A stretch of DNA of 64,000 bases. Origin: Okeania sp. KiyG1 (GTDB taxonomy: Bacteria > Cyanobacteriota > Cyanobacteriia > Cyanobacteriales > Microcoleaceae). The notes below the pieces were generated by a model that made no database searches, was not told the origin of the DNA, and saw only the letters and a list, made by a program, of their open reading frames with translations. Positions 40,414 to 46,670 of this stretch are shown here, in pieces (positions within the stretch are counted from its first letter, which is position 1; every line of letters starts with the position of its first letter). The translations under genes were made by a program, and so were the position numbers. The stretch covers positions 1-64,000 of the forward strand of contig NZ_BLZO01000031.1 in assembly GCF_014132355.1 (NCBI RefSeq). Direction: 5' to 3'.

Positions 40414-41508
40414 CTAAACATTAAATCGGAAGAGCAAAACATCTCCTTCCTTCACAACATAATCTTTACCTTCACTCCTCATCAGACCCTTTTCTTTAGC
40501 AGCAGTCATTGAACCAGTCGCTACTAGATCCTCATAAGCAATTGTTTCTGCTCGAATAAAACCCCGTTCAAAATCAGTATGAATTACACCAGCAGCTTGA
40601 GGAGCTAACATTCCAGCTTGAATTGTCCAAGCCTTAGTTTCTTTCTCTCCAGTAGTAAAATAAGTGCGCAATCCCAATAATTCATAAGTTGCTTTAATTA
40701 GAGATTTCAACCCACCTTCTTCTACTCCTAAAGATTCTAAATAATCAGCTCTTTCTTCCTCCGGTAACTCAATTAATTCTGATTCTACCTGAGCTGAAAT
40801 TATCACAACTTGAGCATTTTCTACCGCAGCAATATTGCGGACTTTTTCAACCCCCAATCATTTCCACTAGCTAAGTCATCCTCTGACACATTAGCAGCAT
40901 AAATTATCGGCTTAGAAGTTAACAGATTTAAAGGCTTAATTAAAAAAAGATTCATCTTCATTTAAGTCAGCCATTCTCACTGACTTACCTTCATTTAAAA
41001 TCCCCTCTAATTTTGTCAAAACTTCCAATTCTGCCTGAGCATCTTTACTGGTACGAGCTTGTTTTTTAGTCCGTTCAATTCGACGTTCAACTTGAGCTAA
41101 ATCGGACAAAGCCAACTCTAAATTGATTACCTCAATATCTCGCACTGGATCGACCGAACCAGAAACATGAATAATATCCTCACTATCAAAACAACGGACT
41201 ACCTGAACAATAGCATCCACCTCTCGAATATTAGACAAAAATTGATTCCCTAATCCCTCTCCTTTACTAGCACCTTTAACCAAACCAGCAATATCAACAA
41301 ACTCAATTCTAGTAGGAACAGTTTGAGCAGAATTAGAAATTTTAGTCAGCACATTTAACCGCTCATCTGGCACCGAAACCACACCAACATTGGGTTCAAT
41401 TGTGCAAAATGGAAAGTTAGCAGCTTCCGCTTTAGCATTAGCAACCAAAGCATTAAATAAAGTAGATTTTCCGACGTTGGGTAGTCCGACAATTCCAGCT
41501 CTGAGCAT
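40414..41508 (-). pseudogene. ychF: YchF (Obg-family ATPase) with two homopolymer frameshifts
   Basis: The first 190 codons show the G domain: [14 protein letters not shown] (P loop), [20 protein letters not shown] (G3 region) and [10 protein letters not shown]. The frame ends after [10 protein letters not shown] at a T7 run (A7 on the plus strand, 40942-40948). One T fewer continues as [11 protein letters not shown] and KPIIYAANVSEDDLASGNDW. A second shift at the G5 run (plus-strand C5, 40851-40855) leads into VEKVRNIAAVENAQVV and the C-terminal TGS domain (AWTIQAGMLAPQAAGVIHTDF, FIRAETIAYEDL). All domains are conserved, so either the gene died recently or both runs are base-calling errors. 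Confidence 0.85.
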
Positions 41509-41770: not shown

Positions 41771-43738
41771 ATGTCCATGAAATCTATCAGAACCAAACTC
41801 AAATTAAATAATAAACAAAAAACTTTGATGGCTCAACACGCGGGCTATTCAAGATGGGTTTATAACTGGGGTTTGAGTTTGTGGAATGCTGCTTACAGAG
41901 ACGGTTATCAGCCTAATGCTCGTAAGTTGAGAGAAGTTTTCACTAATCACACTAAACCACTTTATCCCTGGATGAAGAGCTTGTCATCTAAAGTTTATCA
42001 ATATGCTTTGATCAACTTGGGTGAAGCGTTTAAGAGATTTTTTCAAGGGTTAGGTAAATATCCAAGGTTTAAGAAGAAAGGTAAACACGATTCTTTTACA
42101 ATTGATAATTTTGGAAAGCCAATAGAATTAAATGGTTGGAGTCACAAATTACCTTTTATTGGCATGGTGAAAACCTATGAACCAATTGAAGCAACTACTC
42201 AGAAAATAACTATTAGTAGACAAGCTGATGATTGGTACCTAAGTTTAGCTTTTGAATTTACCCCGACTTCAACAGAAAAAATTACTGATGTAGTAGGTGT
42301 TGACTTAGGTGTAAAAACTTTAGCAACCTTAAGCACTGGCGAAGTTTTCAACAGTGTTAAACCTTACCGTAAAGCTCAAAACAAGCTAGCAAAATTGCAA
42401 CGCCAAGTTAGTAGAAAAGTTAAACATTCTCGTAATTGGTATAAGGCTGTAATCAAGTTAGCTAAACAGCATAGACGAGTAGCTAATATCCGTAAAGATG
42501 CACTTCATAAATTAACAACATACTTAGCCAAAGTGCGACTCGTTCCTGTTAGGAGCCTCTAGAAACTAGAGGGGTATGAACAGGGTTCAAAGAGCAATTA
42601 AGCTCAATGAATAACTGAGTCACGGATGTGGGTGAAAGTCCCACCTGCCAAGGGAAGGCAGACTCCCGACCTGGCCACACCGAGCTAGACCTTTCCACTA
42701 GCAGAGTGAAGCTGGCAACAGGCCCCAACCAGAGCGTATAGTGGTAGGCACACTGGGGGTAATGGGGAGACGGCATGGGTACCGGGGCGGAATGTCCTGA
42801 AAAAGCGCCTCAAAGTACGGCAAGAACCACCTCTTATCTCTTGACCGCACACGAGGAAATCCCGCGTAATATTTTGGCATTAGACGCATCCCTGGGAATC
42901 GTGTAGGCGAATTGGACAGCCCTAAACCGTCAAAATAATCTGTAACTCGGAACGAGGAAAAACGGCAAGTGAGTCTGACTAAAATAGGTTATTTAGTTAG
43001 TAGGAGGGAAGCTCGGAATTCTCACTTGACGGGTAGGATGGGGGAACAGAATTGCCCCCGGCAGTCGAGAAACGGTAGTTGGATAGGTGATGATGCTTAG
43101 ACACCTAGAGTGAAGCTCGCTGAAACTATGCGTACAGGGCAGAAGCTTTTAACCTGTAATTGCCTTGCTCGTTAGTCGAATGCAAAGCGACCCGGAAGCA
43201 GAAGCTCCAAGGCGGTAGGATTAGACACTCCTTGAAAACAATAGTGGAAGATTAGGAATCACTGGACTCTGACCAAGTTTAGTCTTAATCAAAGGATTTT
43301 GTATCTCACATGATACGTTGCCATAGACTGCTAGGAGCCTTGTGCGGTGAAAGTCGCACGCAGGGTTTTGAAGTAGAGGTGCGGGCGGTAATACGCCACA
43401 TCGACTATAACAACCACGGCAGTGTAGTAATTGAAGATTTGAACGTCAGTGGAATGTTAGCTAACCATAAGCTAGCTAAATCAGTTAGCAGATAGTGTTT
43501 TTATGAGTTTAGGAGACAGCTTGAATATAAGTGCCAGTGGTACGGTTCTGAGTTAGTAGTAGTTGACAAGTTTTTCCCATCATCAAAAACTTGCTCTAAC
43601 TGTGGTCATGTCCAAGATATGCCATTAAGCCTGAGAACTTATGATTGTCCTGACTGTGGCTTGTCAATAGATCGAGATTTAAACGCCAGTATTAATTTGA
43701 GAAATGCGGTCGGCTCGACCGTGAATGCCTGTGGATGA
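41771..43738 (+). pseudogene. TnpB gene interrupted by a group II intron
   Basis: Exon 1 (41771-42532) starts MSMKSIRTKLKLNNKQKTLM and includes KYPRFKKKGKHDSF and RuvC-I (VVGVDLGVKTLATLSTG). After the intron, exon 2 continues in frame: NHGSVVIEDLNVSGMLANHK (RuvC-II glutamate), the zinc ribbon CSNCGHV and CPDCGLSIDRDLNASINL (RuvC-III aspartate), ending TGA 43738. An in-frame TAG at 43493-43495 (after KSVSR) would still truncate the spliced product just before the zinc ribbon. No tnpA is present. Confidence 0.85.
42533..43411 (+). other. Group II intron without a reverse transcriptase ORF
   Basis: The 5' boundary is the consensus GTGCGAC. Domain V is at 43335-43368, with the diagnostic GAGCCTTGTGCGG, GAAA loop and CGCACGCAGGGTTTT. 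A domain VI stem follows, and the intron ends in AC (43411; an AT end at 43408 is also frame-compatible). Domain I contains TTTGGC (42873-42878), complementary to the last six exon bases GCCAAA, as expected for EBS1/IBS1. At about 879 nt it encodes no protein, so splicing and mobility must rely on a maturase elsewhere. Exon joining keeps the tnpB frame. Confidence 0.92.
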
Positions 43739-43926
43739 GTAACCGCCGACGGCCTCAGTGGAAGCAGGAAGTAAACAGCCTCCTACGGAGGAGCTTCGCT
43801 ATCAGATTGTCACCTTATGTGACGCTTTGTATCAGTTTTATAGAGCAGTTAGTGATTTTTAGCTAGAAAATAAGTTAAAGTATTTTTTGATTATTAGTTA
43901 TCATTTTGTCAAAAAACTATTGTACA
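43739..43926. promoter_or_regulatory. Short region before the HTH-ParA-ParB module
   Basis: It contains the tail of the tnpB element, with a hairpin CAGCCTCCTACGGAGGAGC near 43781, and about 100 AT-rich bases before the HTH gene. The module promoter should lie here. Confidence 0.35.
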
Positions 43927-44421
43927 ATGGTTAAAGAAAAAATTATTGGAACTAGAGAAGCAGCATATTTACTAGGTATTTCCGGTCAACGTTTGCGGGT
44001 ATTATTGGCTCAAGGTAGGGTCAAAGGTGCTTACAAGGAAAATGGCTTCTGGAAAATTCCCATTTCTGGGCCAGAAGATCATGAGATGCCTGTAATTTCT
44101 CCTGGTACCAGAGGACCGAAAGGTGTTTGGTGTAAGCGGAGGCGTACTAAACCGACAATGATTCATGTTAATCAGCATATCATTCAGCGCAATGCAAATA
44201 ACCCACTAAAAGATATCAAACCAGTAGTTTCTGTGAAGCAGACTAATCACAATAAATATGGTTATCAACTAGAAATCAAAGGTCCTTGTCGAATTGTTTA
44301 TCGACCTCACAACCCGGCTGGATGTGGCGCTCATTTGTGGATTGATACTTTTAGCCCCGTGCAATTTGTAGATACGAATTTTAATCCGGTTACTGCTAAT
44401 CGAGCTTATAAGTACATATAG
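43927..44421 (+). CDS. Excisionase/MerR-type HTH protein, first gene of a three-gene module
   Basis: A 164-residue protein. The N-terminal winged-HTH resembles excisionase or MerR-like domains (GTREAAYLLGISGQRLRVLL, then GRVKGAYKENGFWKIP), about residues 5-55. The remaining 110 residues are basic (GVWCKRRRTKPTMIHVNQ) and end in a beta-rich segment (IVYRPHNPAGCGAHLWIDTF) that I do not recognise. A TTG at 43906 is in frame; ATG 43927 is preferred. It precedes the ParA fusion by 87 bp on the same strand and may regulate the module or mark a DNA site for it. It is not a typical xis, which is shorter. Confidence 0.7.
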   Translation: MVKEKIIGTREAAYLLGISGQRLRVLLAQGRVKGAYKENGFWKIPISGPEDHEMPVISPGTRGPKGVWCKRRRTKPTMIHVNQHIIQRNANNPLKDIKPVVSVKQTNHNKYGYQLEIKGPCRIVYRPHNPAGCGAHLWIDTFSPVQFVDTNFNPVTANRAYKYI

Positions 44422-44508
44422 GTAAGTTAAGTAAGTAGATAAAATTGAGATTTTTTGCAATACTTGTCGTGATAAGCTGATAGTTAAAGTCAAAAAAATT
44501 AACGACAG

Positions 44509-45891
44509 ATGGATAGTGCTGTGAAAAATCAAGCTCTTGTAGATGCTTTGGCGAAAAATCTGCCGGAGGATGCAAATGAAGCGCAAGTTAGTGATATTTT
44601 TGCATCTGAATTATTTAATTTTCTGGGTTTTGAAGTAAATGAACGAGTGCCTTCTTTTTATACAAGAAGCGGTACCGATCCAGTCGATCATGCTCTACGT
44701 CATAATATGGAGAATGACATATTTAATCAAACCAAAACTAATCCAGATATTCTCGTAGAATTGAAAAAACGGAATCTTAATTTAGCTCCTGGTTCAAAAG
44801 GATATAAAGATACTTTTAAACAAATTAAACGGTATTTATTAGCAGAAAATTGTCAAGCAGTGAAGTGGGGAATAATTACCAATGCTAATCACATCCAATT
44901 ATTTAGAAAGCATGGAAAAGTTATTCATCCAGCGACAGTTTGTCTGGAAATTAATCCAGAAAATATCATCAAAATCGCCACATCAATTAAAGAAAAAATT
45001 GATAAACCAAAAAAAGCATTAACAGTAGCAGTTTATAACAATAAGGGTGGCGTAGGAAAAACAACAACTACAGTTAATACAGCAGCAACCTTATCTCTGT
45101 ATAATAAGAAAGTTTTGATTGTGGATTTTGACCCTAATCAAAGAGACCTGACAAATTCTCTAGCAATAAAACCAGGTACACCTACTTTTTATGATTGTTT
45201 AGTAGATAAAAATATTAATGTCACAGATGTCATTTATCCCTACAAACTTAATAGTAAAAAATCAAAAAAATCATTTGGTTTTGATGTAATTCCAGTACAT
45301 GGAAAACTTGGCGATTGGGACGATGTTGCGCAAAAAATTACCTTTGACAGATTAAGCAAATTATTAGACACACTAAAAAATAGCTATGATTATATCTTCA
45401 TTGATGCTCCTCCCAACTGGCGAATATTCAGTGTTAGTGCTGTTTATGCCGCAGATGTAGTGTTAATTCCAGCAAAACATAACAACTTATATTCCCTAGA
45501 AAATGCAGCTATAGCTATTAAAGAATATATTCCAGCAGTTCAAAAAGCAAGAATAAAAGATGCAGCAAGAAGAAAAAATGAAGATTTCGGACCAGTAGCT
45601 CTACCGATTTTTTTTAATGGTGAGAAAATGACGGACGCTCAAAAGAAAAGTGCTAAACTGCATATCAATAAACTGATTAGAGAAGCTCAAGAAAATTCAA
45701 ATAATCAATTTTCTCTCAGACCATATTTTTATCCCCGCTATACAGCAGCAAACAAAAATACAGATATATTTGAACTTCCTAATTATGCTTCTATTGCAAA
45801 TTCTGCTTTTTCTCATATACCTGCTGTTTACAAAGATAAGATAGCTAAGGGATATTATATTAATTTGGTTAAGGAGTATTTTCTACAATGA
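44509..45891 (+). CDS. Fusion of a PD-(D/E)xK-like domain with a ParA-type ATPase
   Basis: A 460-residue protein. Residues about 1-165 resemble the N-terminal endonuclease-like domain of type I restriction R subunits: SDIFASELFNFLGFE, NPDILVELKKRN giving D80 and E84-L-K86 of the PD-(D/E)xK signature, then FKQIKRYLLAENCQAVKWGI and a beta strand. Residues about 172-460 are a ParA/MinD ATPase with the deviant Walker A NNKGGVGKTTTT (signature lysine K179, K184), LIVDFDPNQRDL and Walker B YDYIFIDAPP. ParA proteins segregate DNA using ParB partners. A nuclease-like domain fused to ParA is unusual. The stop overlaps the next start (ATGA), so the two are translationally coupled. Function unknown. Confidence 0.85.
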   Translation: MDSAVKNQALVDALAKNLPEDANEAQVSDIFASELFNFLGFEVNERVPSFYTRSGTDPVDHALRHNMENDIFNQTKTNPDILVELKKRNLNLAPGSKGYKDTFKQIKRYLLAENCQAVKWGIITNANHIQLFRKHGKVIHPATVCLEINPENIIKIATSIKEKIDKPKKALTVAVYNNKGGVGKTTTTVNTAATLSLYNKKVLIVDFDPNQRDLTNSLAIKPGTPTFYDCLVDKNINVTDVIYPYKLNSKKSKKSFGFDVIPVHGKLGDWDDVAQKITFDRLSKLLDTLKNSYDYIFIDAPPNWRIFSVSAVYAADVVLIPAKHNNLYSLENAAIAIKEYIPAVQKARIKDAARRKNEDFGPVALPIFFNGEKMTDAQKKSAKLHINKLIREAQENSNNQFSLRPYFYPRYTAANKNTDIFELPNYASIANSAFSHIPAVYKDKIAKGYYINLVKEYFLQ

Positions 45892-46670
45892 GTAATTTGA
45901 GTAATATTGGTAAGTTAATACATCTATATATTGATGAAATTGAACCGGGGGATGGAATAGATGCGCCAGAATTTCTAATTTCAGCAACGGCAAAATTTCT
46001 CAGTGAAAGTGGGGGGCGAAACTGGGTACCTGTAATTGTGAAAGAAGTTGAAGATGATAAATATGAAGTAATTGGTAATTCTTTTATTTTTGCTGTAGCT
46101 GAAGCTGCTGGTTTGGAAAAAGTTTGGTGTGTTATTGCTGATGAAAGTGAAGAAACTGAAAAAATTAGCAAAATTTTGTCTGGAGAAAAAATACCACAAA
46201 TAAATCTTTCCACCGCCACGAGAGACGAAATTAAAACAGCACTTCAATACTTAATTGAAAAACCAAACAGTCAACTTAAAGGAGTGAAGTTAGCAGTAGC
46301 CACAAATCGTATTGATGAAGCACCCCGTCAATATTGGAAAGATTTTAAACCTATCACAAAATTAGGGTGTGGAATTACGACGGCTAAAGTCAAAGCTTTG
46401 AAAGAAGTGTTTTATCTGACTCCCCAACCAATACCTGAACCTGAGAAAGTAAATCTTTCCACTGCTACAAAAGACGAAATTCAAGCAGCACTTCAATATT
46501 TAATCGAAAAGCCAAATAGTCAACTTAAACAAGTTGAATTAACAAAAGCGGCAGAACGTATTGCTGAAGCTCCACGTCAAAATTGGAAAAGCTTAGAACC
46601 AATTACAAAATTAAAGTGTGGAATTGGAAAAGCCAAAATTAATGCTTTAAAAGAAATATTTTATCTATAG
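45888..46670 (+). CDS. ParB-like protein with two duplicated HhH-like repeats
   Basis: A 260-residue protein coupled to the ParA fusion by an ATGA overlap. Residues about 1-95 resemble the ParB/Srx N-terminal fold (NWVPVIVKEVEDDKYEVIGN, AVAEAAGLEKVWCVIAD). The GERRxRA nucleotide motif of canonical ParB is missing, reading GNSFIFAVAEAAG. Residues 105-177 and 188-260 are a tandem duplication (NLSTATRDEIKTALQYLIEK against NLSTATKDEIQAALQYLIEK). Each ends in a helix-hairpin-helix-like CGITTAKVKALKEVF or CGIGKAKINALKEIF, a possible DNA-binding tip replacing the usual ParB HTH. Role is inferred as the DNA-binding partner of the ATPase. Confidence 0.75.
   Translation: MSNLSNIGKLIHLYIDEIEPGDGIDAPEFLISATAKFLSESGGRNWVPVIVKEVEDDKYEVIGNSFIFAVAEAAGLEKVWCVIADESEETEKISKILSGEKIPQINLSTATRDEIKTALQYLIEKPNSQLKGVKLAVATNRIDEAPRQYWKDFKPITKLGCGITTAKVKALKEVFYLTPQPIPEPEKVNLSTATKDEIQAALQYLIEKPNSQLKQVELTKAAERIAEAPRQNWKSLEPITKLKCGIGKAKINALKEIFYL

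What the first reader, a model, noticed from the sequence alone, without database searches (positions are those of the whole stretch)
43927..46670. Candidate undescribed module: HTH protein, nuclease-like/ParA fusion and ParB-like protein with duplicated HhH repeats
Three same-strand genes, the last two coupled by an ATGA overlap, combine elements not normally found together. A PD-(D/E)xK-like domain (D80, E84-L-K86) sits in front of a ParA ATPase with deviant Walker A. The partner has a ParB-like N-terminus lacking GERRxRA and two about 73-residue repeats ending in HhH-like motifs. An excisionase-type HTH protein leads the set. It could be a partition cassette from an integrated plasmid, or a defence or DNA-capture system that positions a nuclease on DNA. 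The functional reading is inference.
Basis: partly seen in the sequence, partly recalled or inferred. Interest (0 to 1): 0.82.

Follow-up and report, generated by a model that had tools for sequence, protein, structure and literature searches.

The report
Nuclease-ParA plus ParB-like gene pair
A pair of neighbouring genes found in many cyanobacteria joins a predicted DNA-cutting domain to a DNA-positioning motor and couples it to a DNA-binding partner; it is a real, conserved and apparently undescribed machine, perhaps used against foreign DNA, although its job has not been tested.

Summary
The core of the finding is real. 44509-45891 encodes a 460-aa protein: an HsdR-type PD-(D/E)xK-like domain fused to a ParA ATPase. 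45888-46670 encodes a ParB_N-like protein with two repeats, 52 of 74 residues identical. The pair is an old two-gene unit: 61 of 68 full-length fusions examined have the partner directly downstream, 44 of these overlapping. The nuclease residues are nearly invariant (E84 64/64, K86 62/64, D60 61/64). The HTH protein is not part of it: 12 matches in the own genome, and beside the module only within the genus. Copies sit on chromosome-sized contigs, plasmids and a prophage-like record. No parS-like array was seen. At one locus its alleles are strongly diverged and mosaic. Nine further viral contigs carry its ParB_N-like domain, two of them with confirmed head genes nearby. I prefer a DNA-surveillance or anti-mobile-element role (0.45) over partition (0.25). 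No function is shown.

The parts
44509..45891 (+). Nuclease-ParA fusion gene, 460 aa
   Evidence: ORF; AAA_31 and weak HSDR_N_2; relatives
44509..45003 (+). HsdR_N-type PD-(D/E)xK-like domain, residues 1-165; E24 (44578-44580), D60 (44686-44688), E84-L-K86 (44758-44766)
   Evidence: E24 62, D60 61, E84 64, K86 62 of 64 distinct fusions; HSDR_N_2 in 14 and HSDR_N in 4 of 19 alignment members at E<=0.1
45016..45543 (+). ParA (deviant Walker A) ATPase domain, residues 170-345; KGGVGKTT at 45043-45066
   Evidence: AAA_31 1.6e-31; ParA/Soj structures by sequence, best 1.3e-15; K184, D208, D299 64/64
45888..46670 (+). ParB-like partner gene, 260 aa, overlapping the fusion by ATGA
   Evidence: ORF; directly downstream in 61 of 68 full-length fusion loci
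45888..46187 (+). ParB_N-like domain, residues 1-100, with an N-terminal I-G-x-L motif and an invariant Asn where ParB has GERRxRA
   Evidence: ParB_N in 22 of 22 alignment members at E<=0.1; G8 and N64 22/22; 26 of 65 GERRxRA ORFs of control loci hit the profile at 1.2e-7 to 0.01
46197..46421 (+). Repeat 1, HhH-like (residues 104-178)
46446..46667 (+). Repeat 2 (residues 187-260), 52/74 identical to repeat 1; many relatives have a Rho_N/SAP-like tail here instead

Best explanation
A two-gene DNA-surveillance or interference module. Inferred working: ParA-ATP dimers load the fused HsdR-type nuclease on DNA. The ParB-like partner binds DNA through its HhH-like repeats (or a Rho_N/SAP tail in relatives) and touches ParA through its I-G-x-L N-terminus, driving ATP turnover, so that the nuclease is released from resident DNA and cuts DNA that is not cleared or is marked by the partner. 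The likely targets are incoming phage or plasmid DNA; copies on plasmids and prophages would exclude competitors. Shown: domain content by profile, conserved active-site residues, operon coupling, spread and allele divergence. Inferred: every step of the mechanism and the target.
For: Nuclease residues kept almost without exception while overall identity falls to about 25%. Two-gene unit with no conserved neighbours outside clades, on chromosome-sized contigs, plasmids, a plasmid annotated with a terminase and a prophage-like record with integrase, regulator, anti-repressor and a phrog_2 match (phrog_2 as terminase is recalled). At one chromosomal locus of the genus, pairs that involve G527 or G517 have fusion dS 0.39-0.56 where the adjacent decarboxylase has 0.10-0.12, and the nuclease and ParA parts have separate histories. 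In genus g61 the fusion protein is 87-90% identical in 5 of 6 pairs whose flank medians are 97-99%, while the partner is 98-99%. No iteron-like array in the seven stretches searched. Three Nostoc plasmids that carry the close or distant form also carry ParM or canonical ParA/ParB. The nuclease part of distant relative L230 matches mad2 of the MADS defence system at 6.2e-7. Nine viral contigs besides G541 carry the partner-type ParB_N domain.
Against: No functional data. Defence genes near it are not clearly more frequent than farther away: 60 against 27 PADLOC profiles matched, several profiles describing one protein. It is kept at one place in several clades, unusual for a volatile defence gene. 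The divergence is not general: in f32 and f40 the fusion dS does not exceed the flank range, the second family in g61 does not stand out, and single flanking genes in the own genus reach dS 0.6. Five fusions with the catalytic residues have no partner gene beside them. On plasmid ABRG53g it is the only partition-like locus annotated. The nuclease part has no significant match among solved structures and could not be modelled.
Confidence: 0.45

Rival explanations
1. A partition or stabilisation system of plasmids and integrated elements. ParA and the ParB-like partner segregate the replicon; the nuclease domain trims, resolves or destroys multimers or competitor plasmids. Chromosomal copies are domesticated.
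For: ParA/ParB-like pair in one operon; 7 cyanobacterial plasmid records with the close or distant form; only partition-like locus annotated on plasmid ABRG53g; I-G-x-L resembles the ParA-binding motif LG-R/K-GL.
Against: By my count 24 copies lie on contigs of 1.7-6.8 Mb; no parS-like array in seven stretches around four copies; three plasmids already have ParM or canonical ParAB; the partner lacks the GERRxRA motif; in g61 the fusion changes fast while the partner does not.
Confidence: 0.25
2. An addiction module: the nuclease fusion is a toxin held in check by the co-translated partner, so loss of the element harms the cell.
For: Tight two-gene coupling. L256, an extra copy without a partner in a genome that also has an intact pair (L255), has lost D60 and K86.
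Against: Five fusions (L331-L335) keep D and ExK by eye but have no partner adjacent, and their genomes, sampled, gave no partner-profile hit at 1e-5; large proteins for a toxin-antitoxin pair.
Confidence: 0.13
3. A chromosome maintenance or repair factor: the nuclease processes DNA ends or dimers at places set by ParA.
For: Retention at one locus in several clades.
Against: Patchy: 48 of 386 genomes of the phylum; several partial or broken copies; found on plasmids and a prophage-like record.
Confidence: 0.1
4. The N-terminal domain is only a DNA-binding leftover of the HsdR fold and cuts nothing.
For: Two copies (L026, L256) have lost D and K but are otherwise open.
Against: E24, D60, E84 and K86 are kept in 61-64 of 64.
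Confidence: 0.07

Closest known systems
ParABS partition systems (ParA/Soj with CTP-dependent ParB)
   Same: ParA ATPase of the deviant Walker A class; ParB_N-like partner in the same operon; N-terminal G-x-L motif like the ParA-binding motif.
   Different: Nuclease-like domain fused to ParA; partner lacks GERRxRA and has HhH-like or Rho_N/SAP tails; no parS array seen in the stretches searched.
HsdR N-terminal nuclease domain (HSDR_N, HSDR_N_2) of Type I restriction enzymes
   Same: E, D, ExK signature and profile matches.
   Different: Fused to ParA, not to a helicase motor (recalled for HsdR). HsdM and HsdS were not searched for.
PADLOC candidate PDC-M28B
   Same: A ParA domain that begins near position 125 of a 438-position profile, so behind an N-terminal extension.
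   Different: Only the ParA part matches (residues 167-266, E=2e-9; the same with distant relatives).
MADS defence system, component mad2
   Same: Residues 33-140 of the distant fusion L230 match it at 6.2e-7.
   Different: Match limited to the nuclease part of one distant relative; the window protein does not match.
ParB_N-DUF3850 proteins encoded beside parA (PMC12704722, passages read)
   Same: Unusual ParB_N fusion next to a ParA gene.
   Different: Different extra domain; no nuclease on the ParA is mentioned in the passages I saw.

Membership tests
PD-(D/E)xK (HsdR_N) nucleases | D, (D/E)xK catalytic residues conserved | tested here: met
   D60 61/64, E84 64/64, K86 62/64
PD-(D/E)xK (HsdR_N) nucleases | Profile match above curated cut-off | tested here: inconclusive
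   Window protein 22.7 against 25 bits; distant relative L330 25.3 against 25
PD-(D/E)xK (HsdR_N) nucleases | Fold and cleavage activity | not testable with these tools
   Structure prediction switched off; no significant PDB match by sequence
ParA ATPases | Deviant Walker A with signature Lys, A' and B aspartates | tested here: met
   AAA_31 1.6e-31; K179 63/64, K184, D208, D299 64/64
ParB (CTPase) family | ParB_N fold by profile | tested here: inconclusive
   22 of 22 members match at E<=0.1, best 7.8e-5, but window protein 17 against 26.3 bits; partner of the distant L328 pair 32.7 bits, above cut-off
ParB (CTPase) family | GERRxRA phosphate motif | tested here: not met
   [GSAI]-N-x at that place, N64 22/22
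ParABS partition system | Repeated centromere site beside the operon | tested here: not met
   No array in seven stretches around four copies; a distant or single site is not excluded
Known anti-phage defence systems (PADLOC) | Match to a catalogued system over its defining proteins | tested here: not met
   Window fusion: ParA-domain match to PDC-M28B only; partner: DrmC at 0.047 only. Distant relatives: ParA-domain matches, plus mad2 on the nuclease part of L230
Helix-hairpin-helix (ComEA-like) proteins | HhH profile match of the repeats | tested here: inconclusive
   TIGR00426 E=0.022 on residues 186-203; HHH_6 7.1e-5 only in the distant partner of L235

The most novel reading that the evidence does not exclude
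A cyanobacterial immune or mobile-element-exclusion system in which a ParA motor delivers an HsdR-type nuclease to DNA under control of a ParB-like sensor, and which cyanophages answer by encoding copies of the sensor's ParB_N domain in head-region, possibly packaged, proteins that act as decoys.
Probability: 0.25. Interest if true: 0.88.

Novelty: new variant of a known kind. Interest (0 to 1): 0.62.

Why it matters
ParA/ParB machines are known to move or position DNA and cell parts. A widespread version with an intact nuclease active site on the motor would mean that the same machinery can be used to find and cut DNA. It occurs in 48 of 386 sampled genomes of the phylum, from an 11-Mb genome to ones of 1.7-1.8 Mb, on chromosome-sized contigs, plasmids and a prophage-like record, and it is simple enough (two genes) to test directly in a transformable cyanobacterium.

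Tried and rejected
Three-gene module: rejected. The HTH protein has no match among 5401 ORFs of 110 loci except in three genus relatives, but 12 matches in its own genome. D80 as catalytic residue: rejected. Recently inserted plasmid remnant: rejected for this copy. Conserved neighbours: none outside clades in the clustering (beyond common types such as ABC transporters and response regulators). Defence island: 128 near against 128 far proteins, taken from 171 and 132 found by the script (it printed 150 and 132); I dropped the rest for the size limits, mostly late loci and very long proteins, and one partner-like ORF; not decisive. Other phyla: nuclease profile A5 found 0 of 398 genomes of the phylum of G550 (the tool warns that an empty answer without a positive control shows nothing; I ran A5 on known members only locally) and 1 of 249 of the phylum of G544, in an 819-aa ORF that looks helicase-like to me, not a ParA fusion; A6 gave ParA-only matches in 22 of 22 other genomes. 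A5 in viral contigs found nothing, although record G541 carries the fusion, so that scan misses members. Two ParB controls, the canonical ParB of L038 and the 423-aa ParB-like protein of G541, gave no hit to the partner profile. Solved structures: no meaningful match for the partner, the nuclease part or the repeats (short hits to designed SAKe proteins only). Literature: the listings of searches showed no description of the pair; PMC2701414, PMC12704722, PMC11237433, PMC12839542 and PMC1913061 were seen as passages, PMC551604 as abstract and outline; the library holds open-licence papers only.
Full report
The window lies in a 10.98-Mb genome of 198 contigs; the five named plasmid relatives opened are all cyanobacterial by their taxonomy lines.

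WHAT IS THERE. Two overlapping genes, 44509-45891 and 45888-46670, follow an HTH protein (43927-44421) on the same strand. The first protein has an N-terminal region matching HSDR_N_2 weakly (E=1.1e-4, below the cut-off) and a strong ParA domain (AAA_31 1.6e-31). Of the 19 members of alignment A3 (window protein included), each scanned alone at E<=0.1, 14 match HSDR_N_2 (best 6.6e-7) and 4 match HSDR_N. In 64 distinct fusions of at least 360 aa, E24 is kept in 62, D60 in 61, E84 in 64 and K86 in 62. Exceptions: two copies lost both D60 and K86 (L026, L256), one has Gln for E24 (L274), and in one the called ORF starts too late (L281, gap). In distant relatives the same columns read PD-x(n)-ExK.

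The second protein matches ParB_N weakly (22 of 22 members of A4 at E<=0.1, best 7.8e-5). As a check, the partner profile was run on 1377 ORFs, nearly all from 80 unrelated ParA loci: 29 of them other than the phage ORFs gave hits, at E 1.2e-7 to 0.01, and 26 of these 29 carry GERRxRA, out of 65 ORFs with that motif; two other ParB controls gave no hit. The partner has no GERRxRA; the place holds an invariant Asn (N64 22/22). An invariant G8 followed by L10 (G 22/22, L 21/22) resembles the ParA-binding motif LG-R/K-GL described in PMC12704722 (passage); this is inference. Behind the ParB_N part lies a repeat of about 74 residues. Many relatives then end in a Rho_N/SAP-like tail (Rho_N 15 of 22, SAP 10 of 22). 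A second repeat was found in 18 of the 60 proteins hit, the window's among them; in the window the two repeats are 52/74 identical. The distant partner of L235 shows true HhH matches (HHH_6 7.1e-5), which supports the HhH reading of the repeats without proving it.

SPREAD. Fusion: 49 of 195 genomes of the order at E<=1e-30, partial matches included; 48 of 386 of the phylum with a broader profile at 1e-40 (by my count of its table 44 near full length, the rest partial or a more distant relative). Partner: 46 of 386. Of 68 full-length fusions in the loci examined, near relatives included, 61 have the partner next downstream, 44 of these overlapping by the ORF calls; one more has it behind an insertion (L308); six have none (L256, L331-L335). 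By my count 24 copies lie on contigs of 1.7-6.8 Mb. Two genomes of 1.7-1.8 Mb carry it 3.6 and 5.2 kb from phrog_1 integrase genes (L231, L230). A second, diverged pair with the same plan (HSDR_N_2-ParA, then a ParB_N protein) occurs in another genus (L328-L330). Plasmids: 7 of 72,556 records carry the close or distant form, two of them the same plasmid in two strains. Named phages: no match of the partner in 50,697 records and only ParA-part matches of the fusion. One IMG/VR record (G541, 58 kb) carries the pair together with integrase, ssDNA-annealing protein, transcriptional regulator and anti-repressor by PHROGs, and a phrog_2 match at 3.5e-28; phrog_2 is the large terminase from my recall, the call prints no name, and it also rings in 11 of 14 control genomes. 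Plasmid pLBA, which carries the distant form, is annotated with a terminase family protein and integrases (1-50,000 and 60,117-73,463 of 77,793 bases seen).

NOT A THREE-GENE SET. The HTH protein has 12 matches in the own genome, one of them beside the module, and matches in 4 other genomes of 292; beside the module it is found only in three genus relatives. In G527 the module stands at the same place without it.

EVOLUTION. All 6 genomes of the genus match at E<=1e-20; 5 have the fusion at full length, G520 an N-terminal part plus a ParA-only match. In the four relatives whose region was fetched it stands between the YchF-type GTPase gene and the Orn/Lys decarboxylase gene. The decarboxylase differs by dS 0.10-0.12 (G530 not included). 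The fusion differs by dS 0.39-0.54 between the window and G527 or G517 and 0.56 between those two, but 0.17-0.18 between the window and G524 or G530. The nuclease part of the window is far from G524 (dS 0.40) where the ParA part is nearly identical (0.06); G517 and G524 show the reverse (0.19 and 0.71). The ParB_N part follows the ParA part, to which it is adjacent, while the repeats stay 91-99% identical in all pairs. Flank medians are 0.10-0.18, but single flanking genes reach 0.6 in window pairs; in the pair L307-L309 all 8 flanks are at most 0.17 and the fusion is 0.43. In genus g61 the fusion proteins are 87-90% identical in 5 of 6 pairs (96% in one) and the partner 98-99%, with flank medians of 97-99% and ordinary dS; pooled pN/pS in full 40-codon windows is 0.24-1.11 for the fusion and, in windows of 31-40 codons, 0.05-0.51 for the partner. 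Against a general rule: in f32 the fusion dS (0.80-1.54) is not above the flank medians of the same pairs (1.43-2.49), in f40 it is 0.23-0.35 against 0.22-0.41, and the second family in g61 is 96% identical against 97%; in g37 one pair has dS 2.63 against a flank median of 0.53. These are simple counts, not a test for positive selection. The pattern points to exchange and fast change of the nuclease-ParA protein in some genera; relaxed constraint is not excluded.

FUNCTION. No parS-like array was seen in seven stretches next to four copies. Three Nostoc plasmids with the close or distant form also carry ParM/StbA or canonical ParA/ParB, but on ABRG53g the pair is the only partition-like locus annotated. 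The neighbourhood comparison with PADLOC gave 60 profile families for 128 near proteins and 27 for 128 far proteins at 1e-10; many profiles describe the same protein, so this is not decisive. The nuclease part of the distant fusion L230 matches mad2 of the MADS defence system at 6.2e-7.

A PHAGE LINK. Searching viral contigs with the partner gave, besides G541, four contigs, and with the domain ten in all, G541 included. In the nine others the ParB_N-like domain lies in an ORF with no fusion found in the stretch held; several of the nine are close to one another. L340 has a major head protein and L343 a portal protein nearby; in five more (L348, L350-L353) a 662-669 aa gene upstream looks portal-like to me, untested. 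In L340-L343 these ORFs score 8e-42 to 3e-23 against the partner profile, while canonical ParBs reach 1.2e-7 at best. The other domains of the alignment are 33-47% identical to the L340 copy, the window partner 38%. Decoys carried in the virion are one reading; shared descent with another role is as possible. Not tested.

VERDICT. A real, conserved, apparently undescribed two-gene machine; the parts list is well supported by sequence, the mechanism is inference. I rate it a new variant of ParA/ParB-type machinery.

Noticed in passing
L340:5605-6675, L341:244-747, L342:4831-6282, L343:4909-6681, and L348, L350-L353: Viral ORFs, two with a confirmed head or portal gene nearby, that carry one or two copies of the partner-type ParB_N-like domain.
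   Followed up: partly
window 41771-43740: An IS605-type transposase (tnpB/OrfB) gene appears interrupted by a group II intron: Rfam RF00029 at 43333-43411, N-terminal part in 41771-42562, C-terminal part in another frame behind the intron match.
   Followed up: partly
window 40414-41508: The YchF-type GTPase gene is broken into two ORFs (190 and 147 aa) here, while four genus relatives have 363 aa; pseudogene or sequence error.
   Followed up: partly
window 43927-44421 and 11 further matches in G000: A multi-copy family of about 164-aa HTH proteins (excisionase-like N-terminus, phrog_8676 C-terminus) scattered over this genome, rare elsewhere (5 of 292 genomes including the own one).
   Followed up: partly
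L328:8538-10571, L329, L330:7822-9977: A second, diverged nuclease-ParA plus ParB_N gene pair; its ParB_N (L328) and HSDR_N_2 (L330) matches pass the Pfam cut-offs.
   Followed up: partly
L331-L333, L334, L335: Solo fusions with D and ExK retained by eye but no adjacent partner gene; L331-L333 sit beside genes that look like rpsB/tsf to me.
   Followed up: partly
L313:5285-6556 (record G541): The prophage-like record that carries the pair also encodes a second, 423-aa ParB-like protein, which the partner profile does not hit.
   Followed up: no
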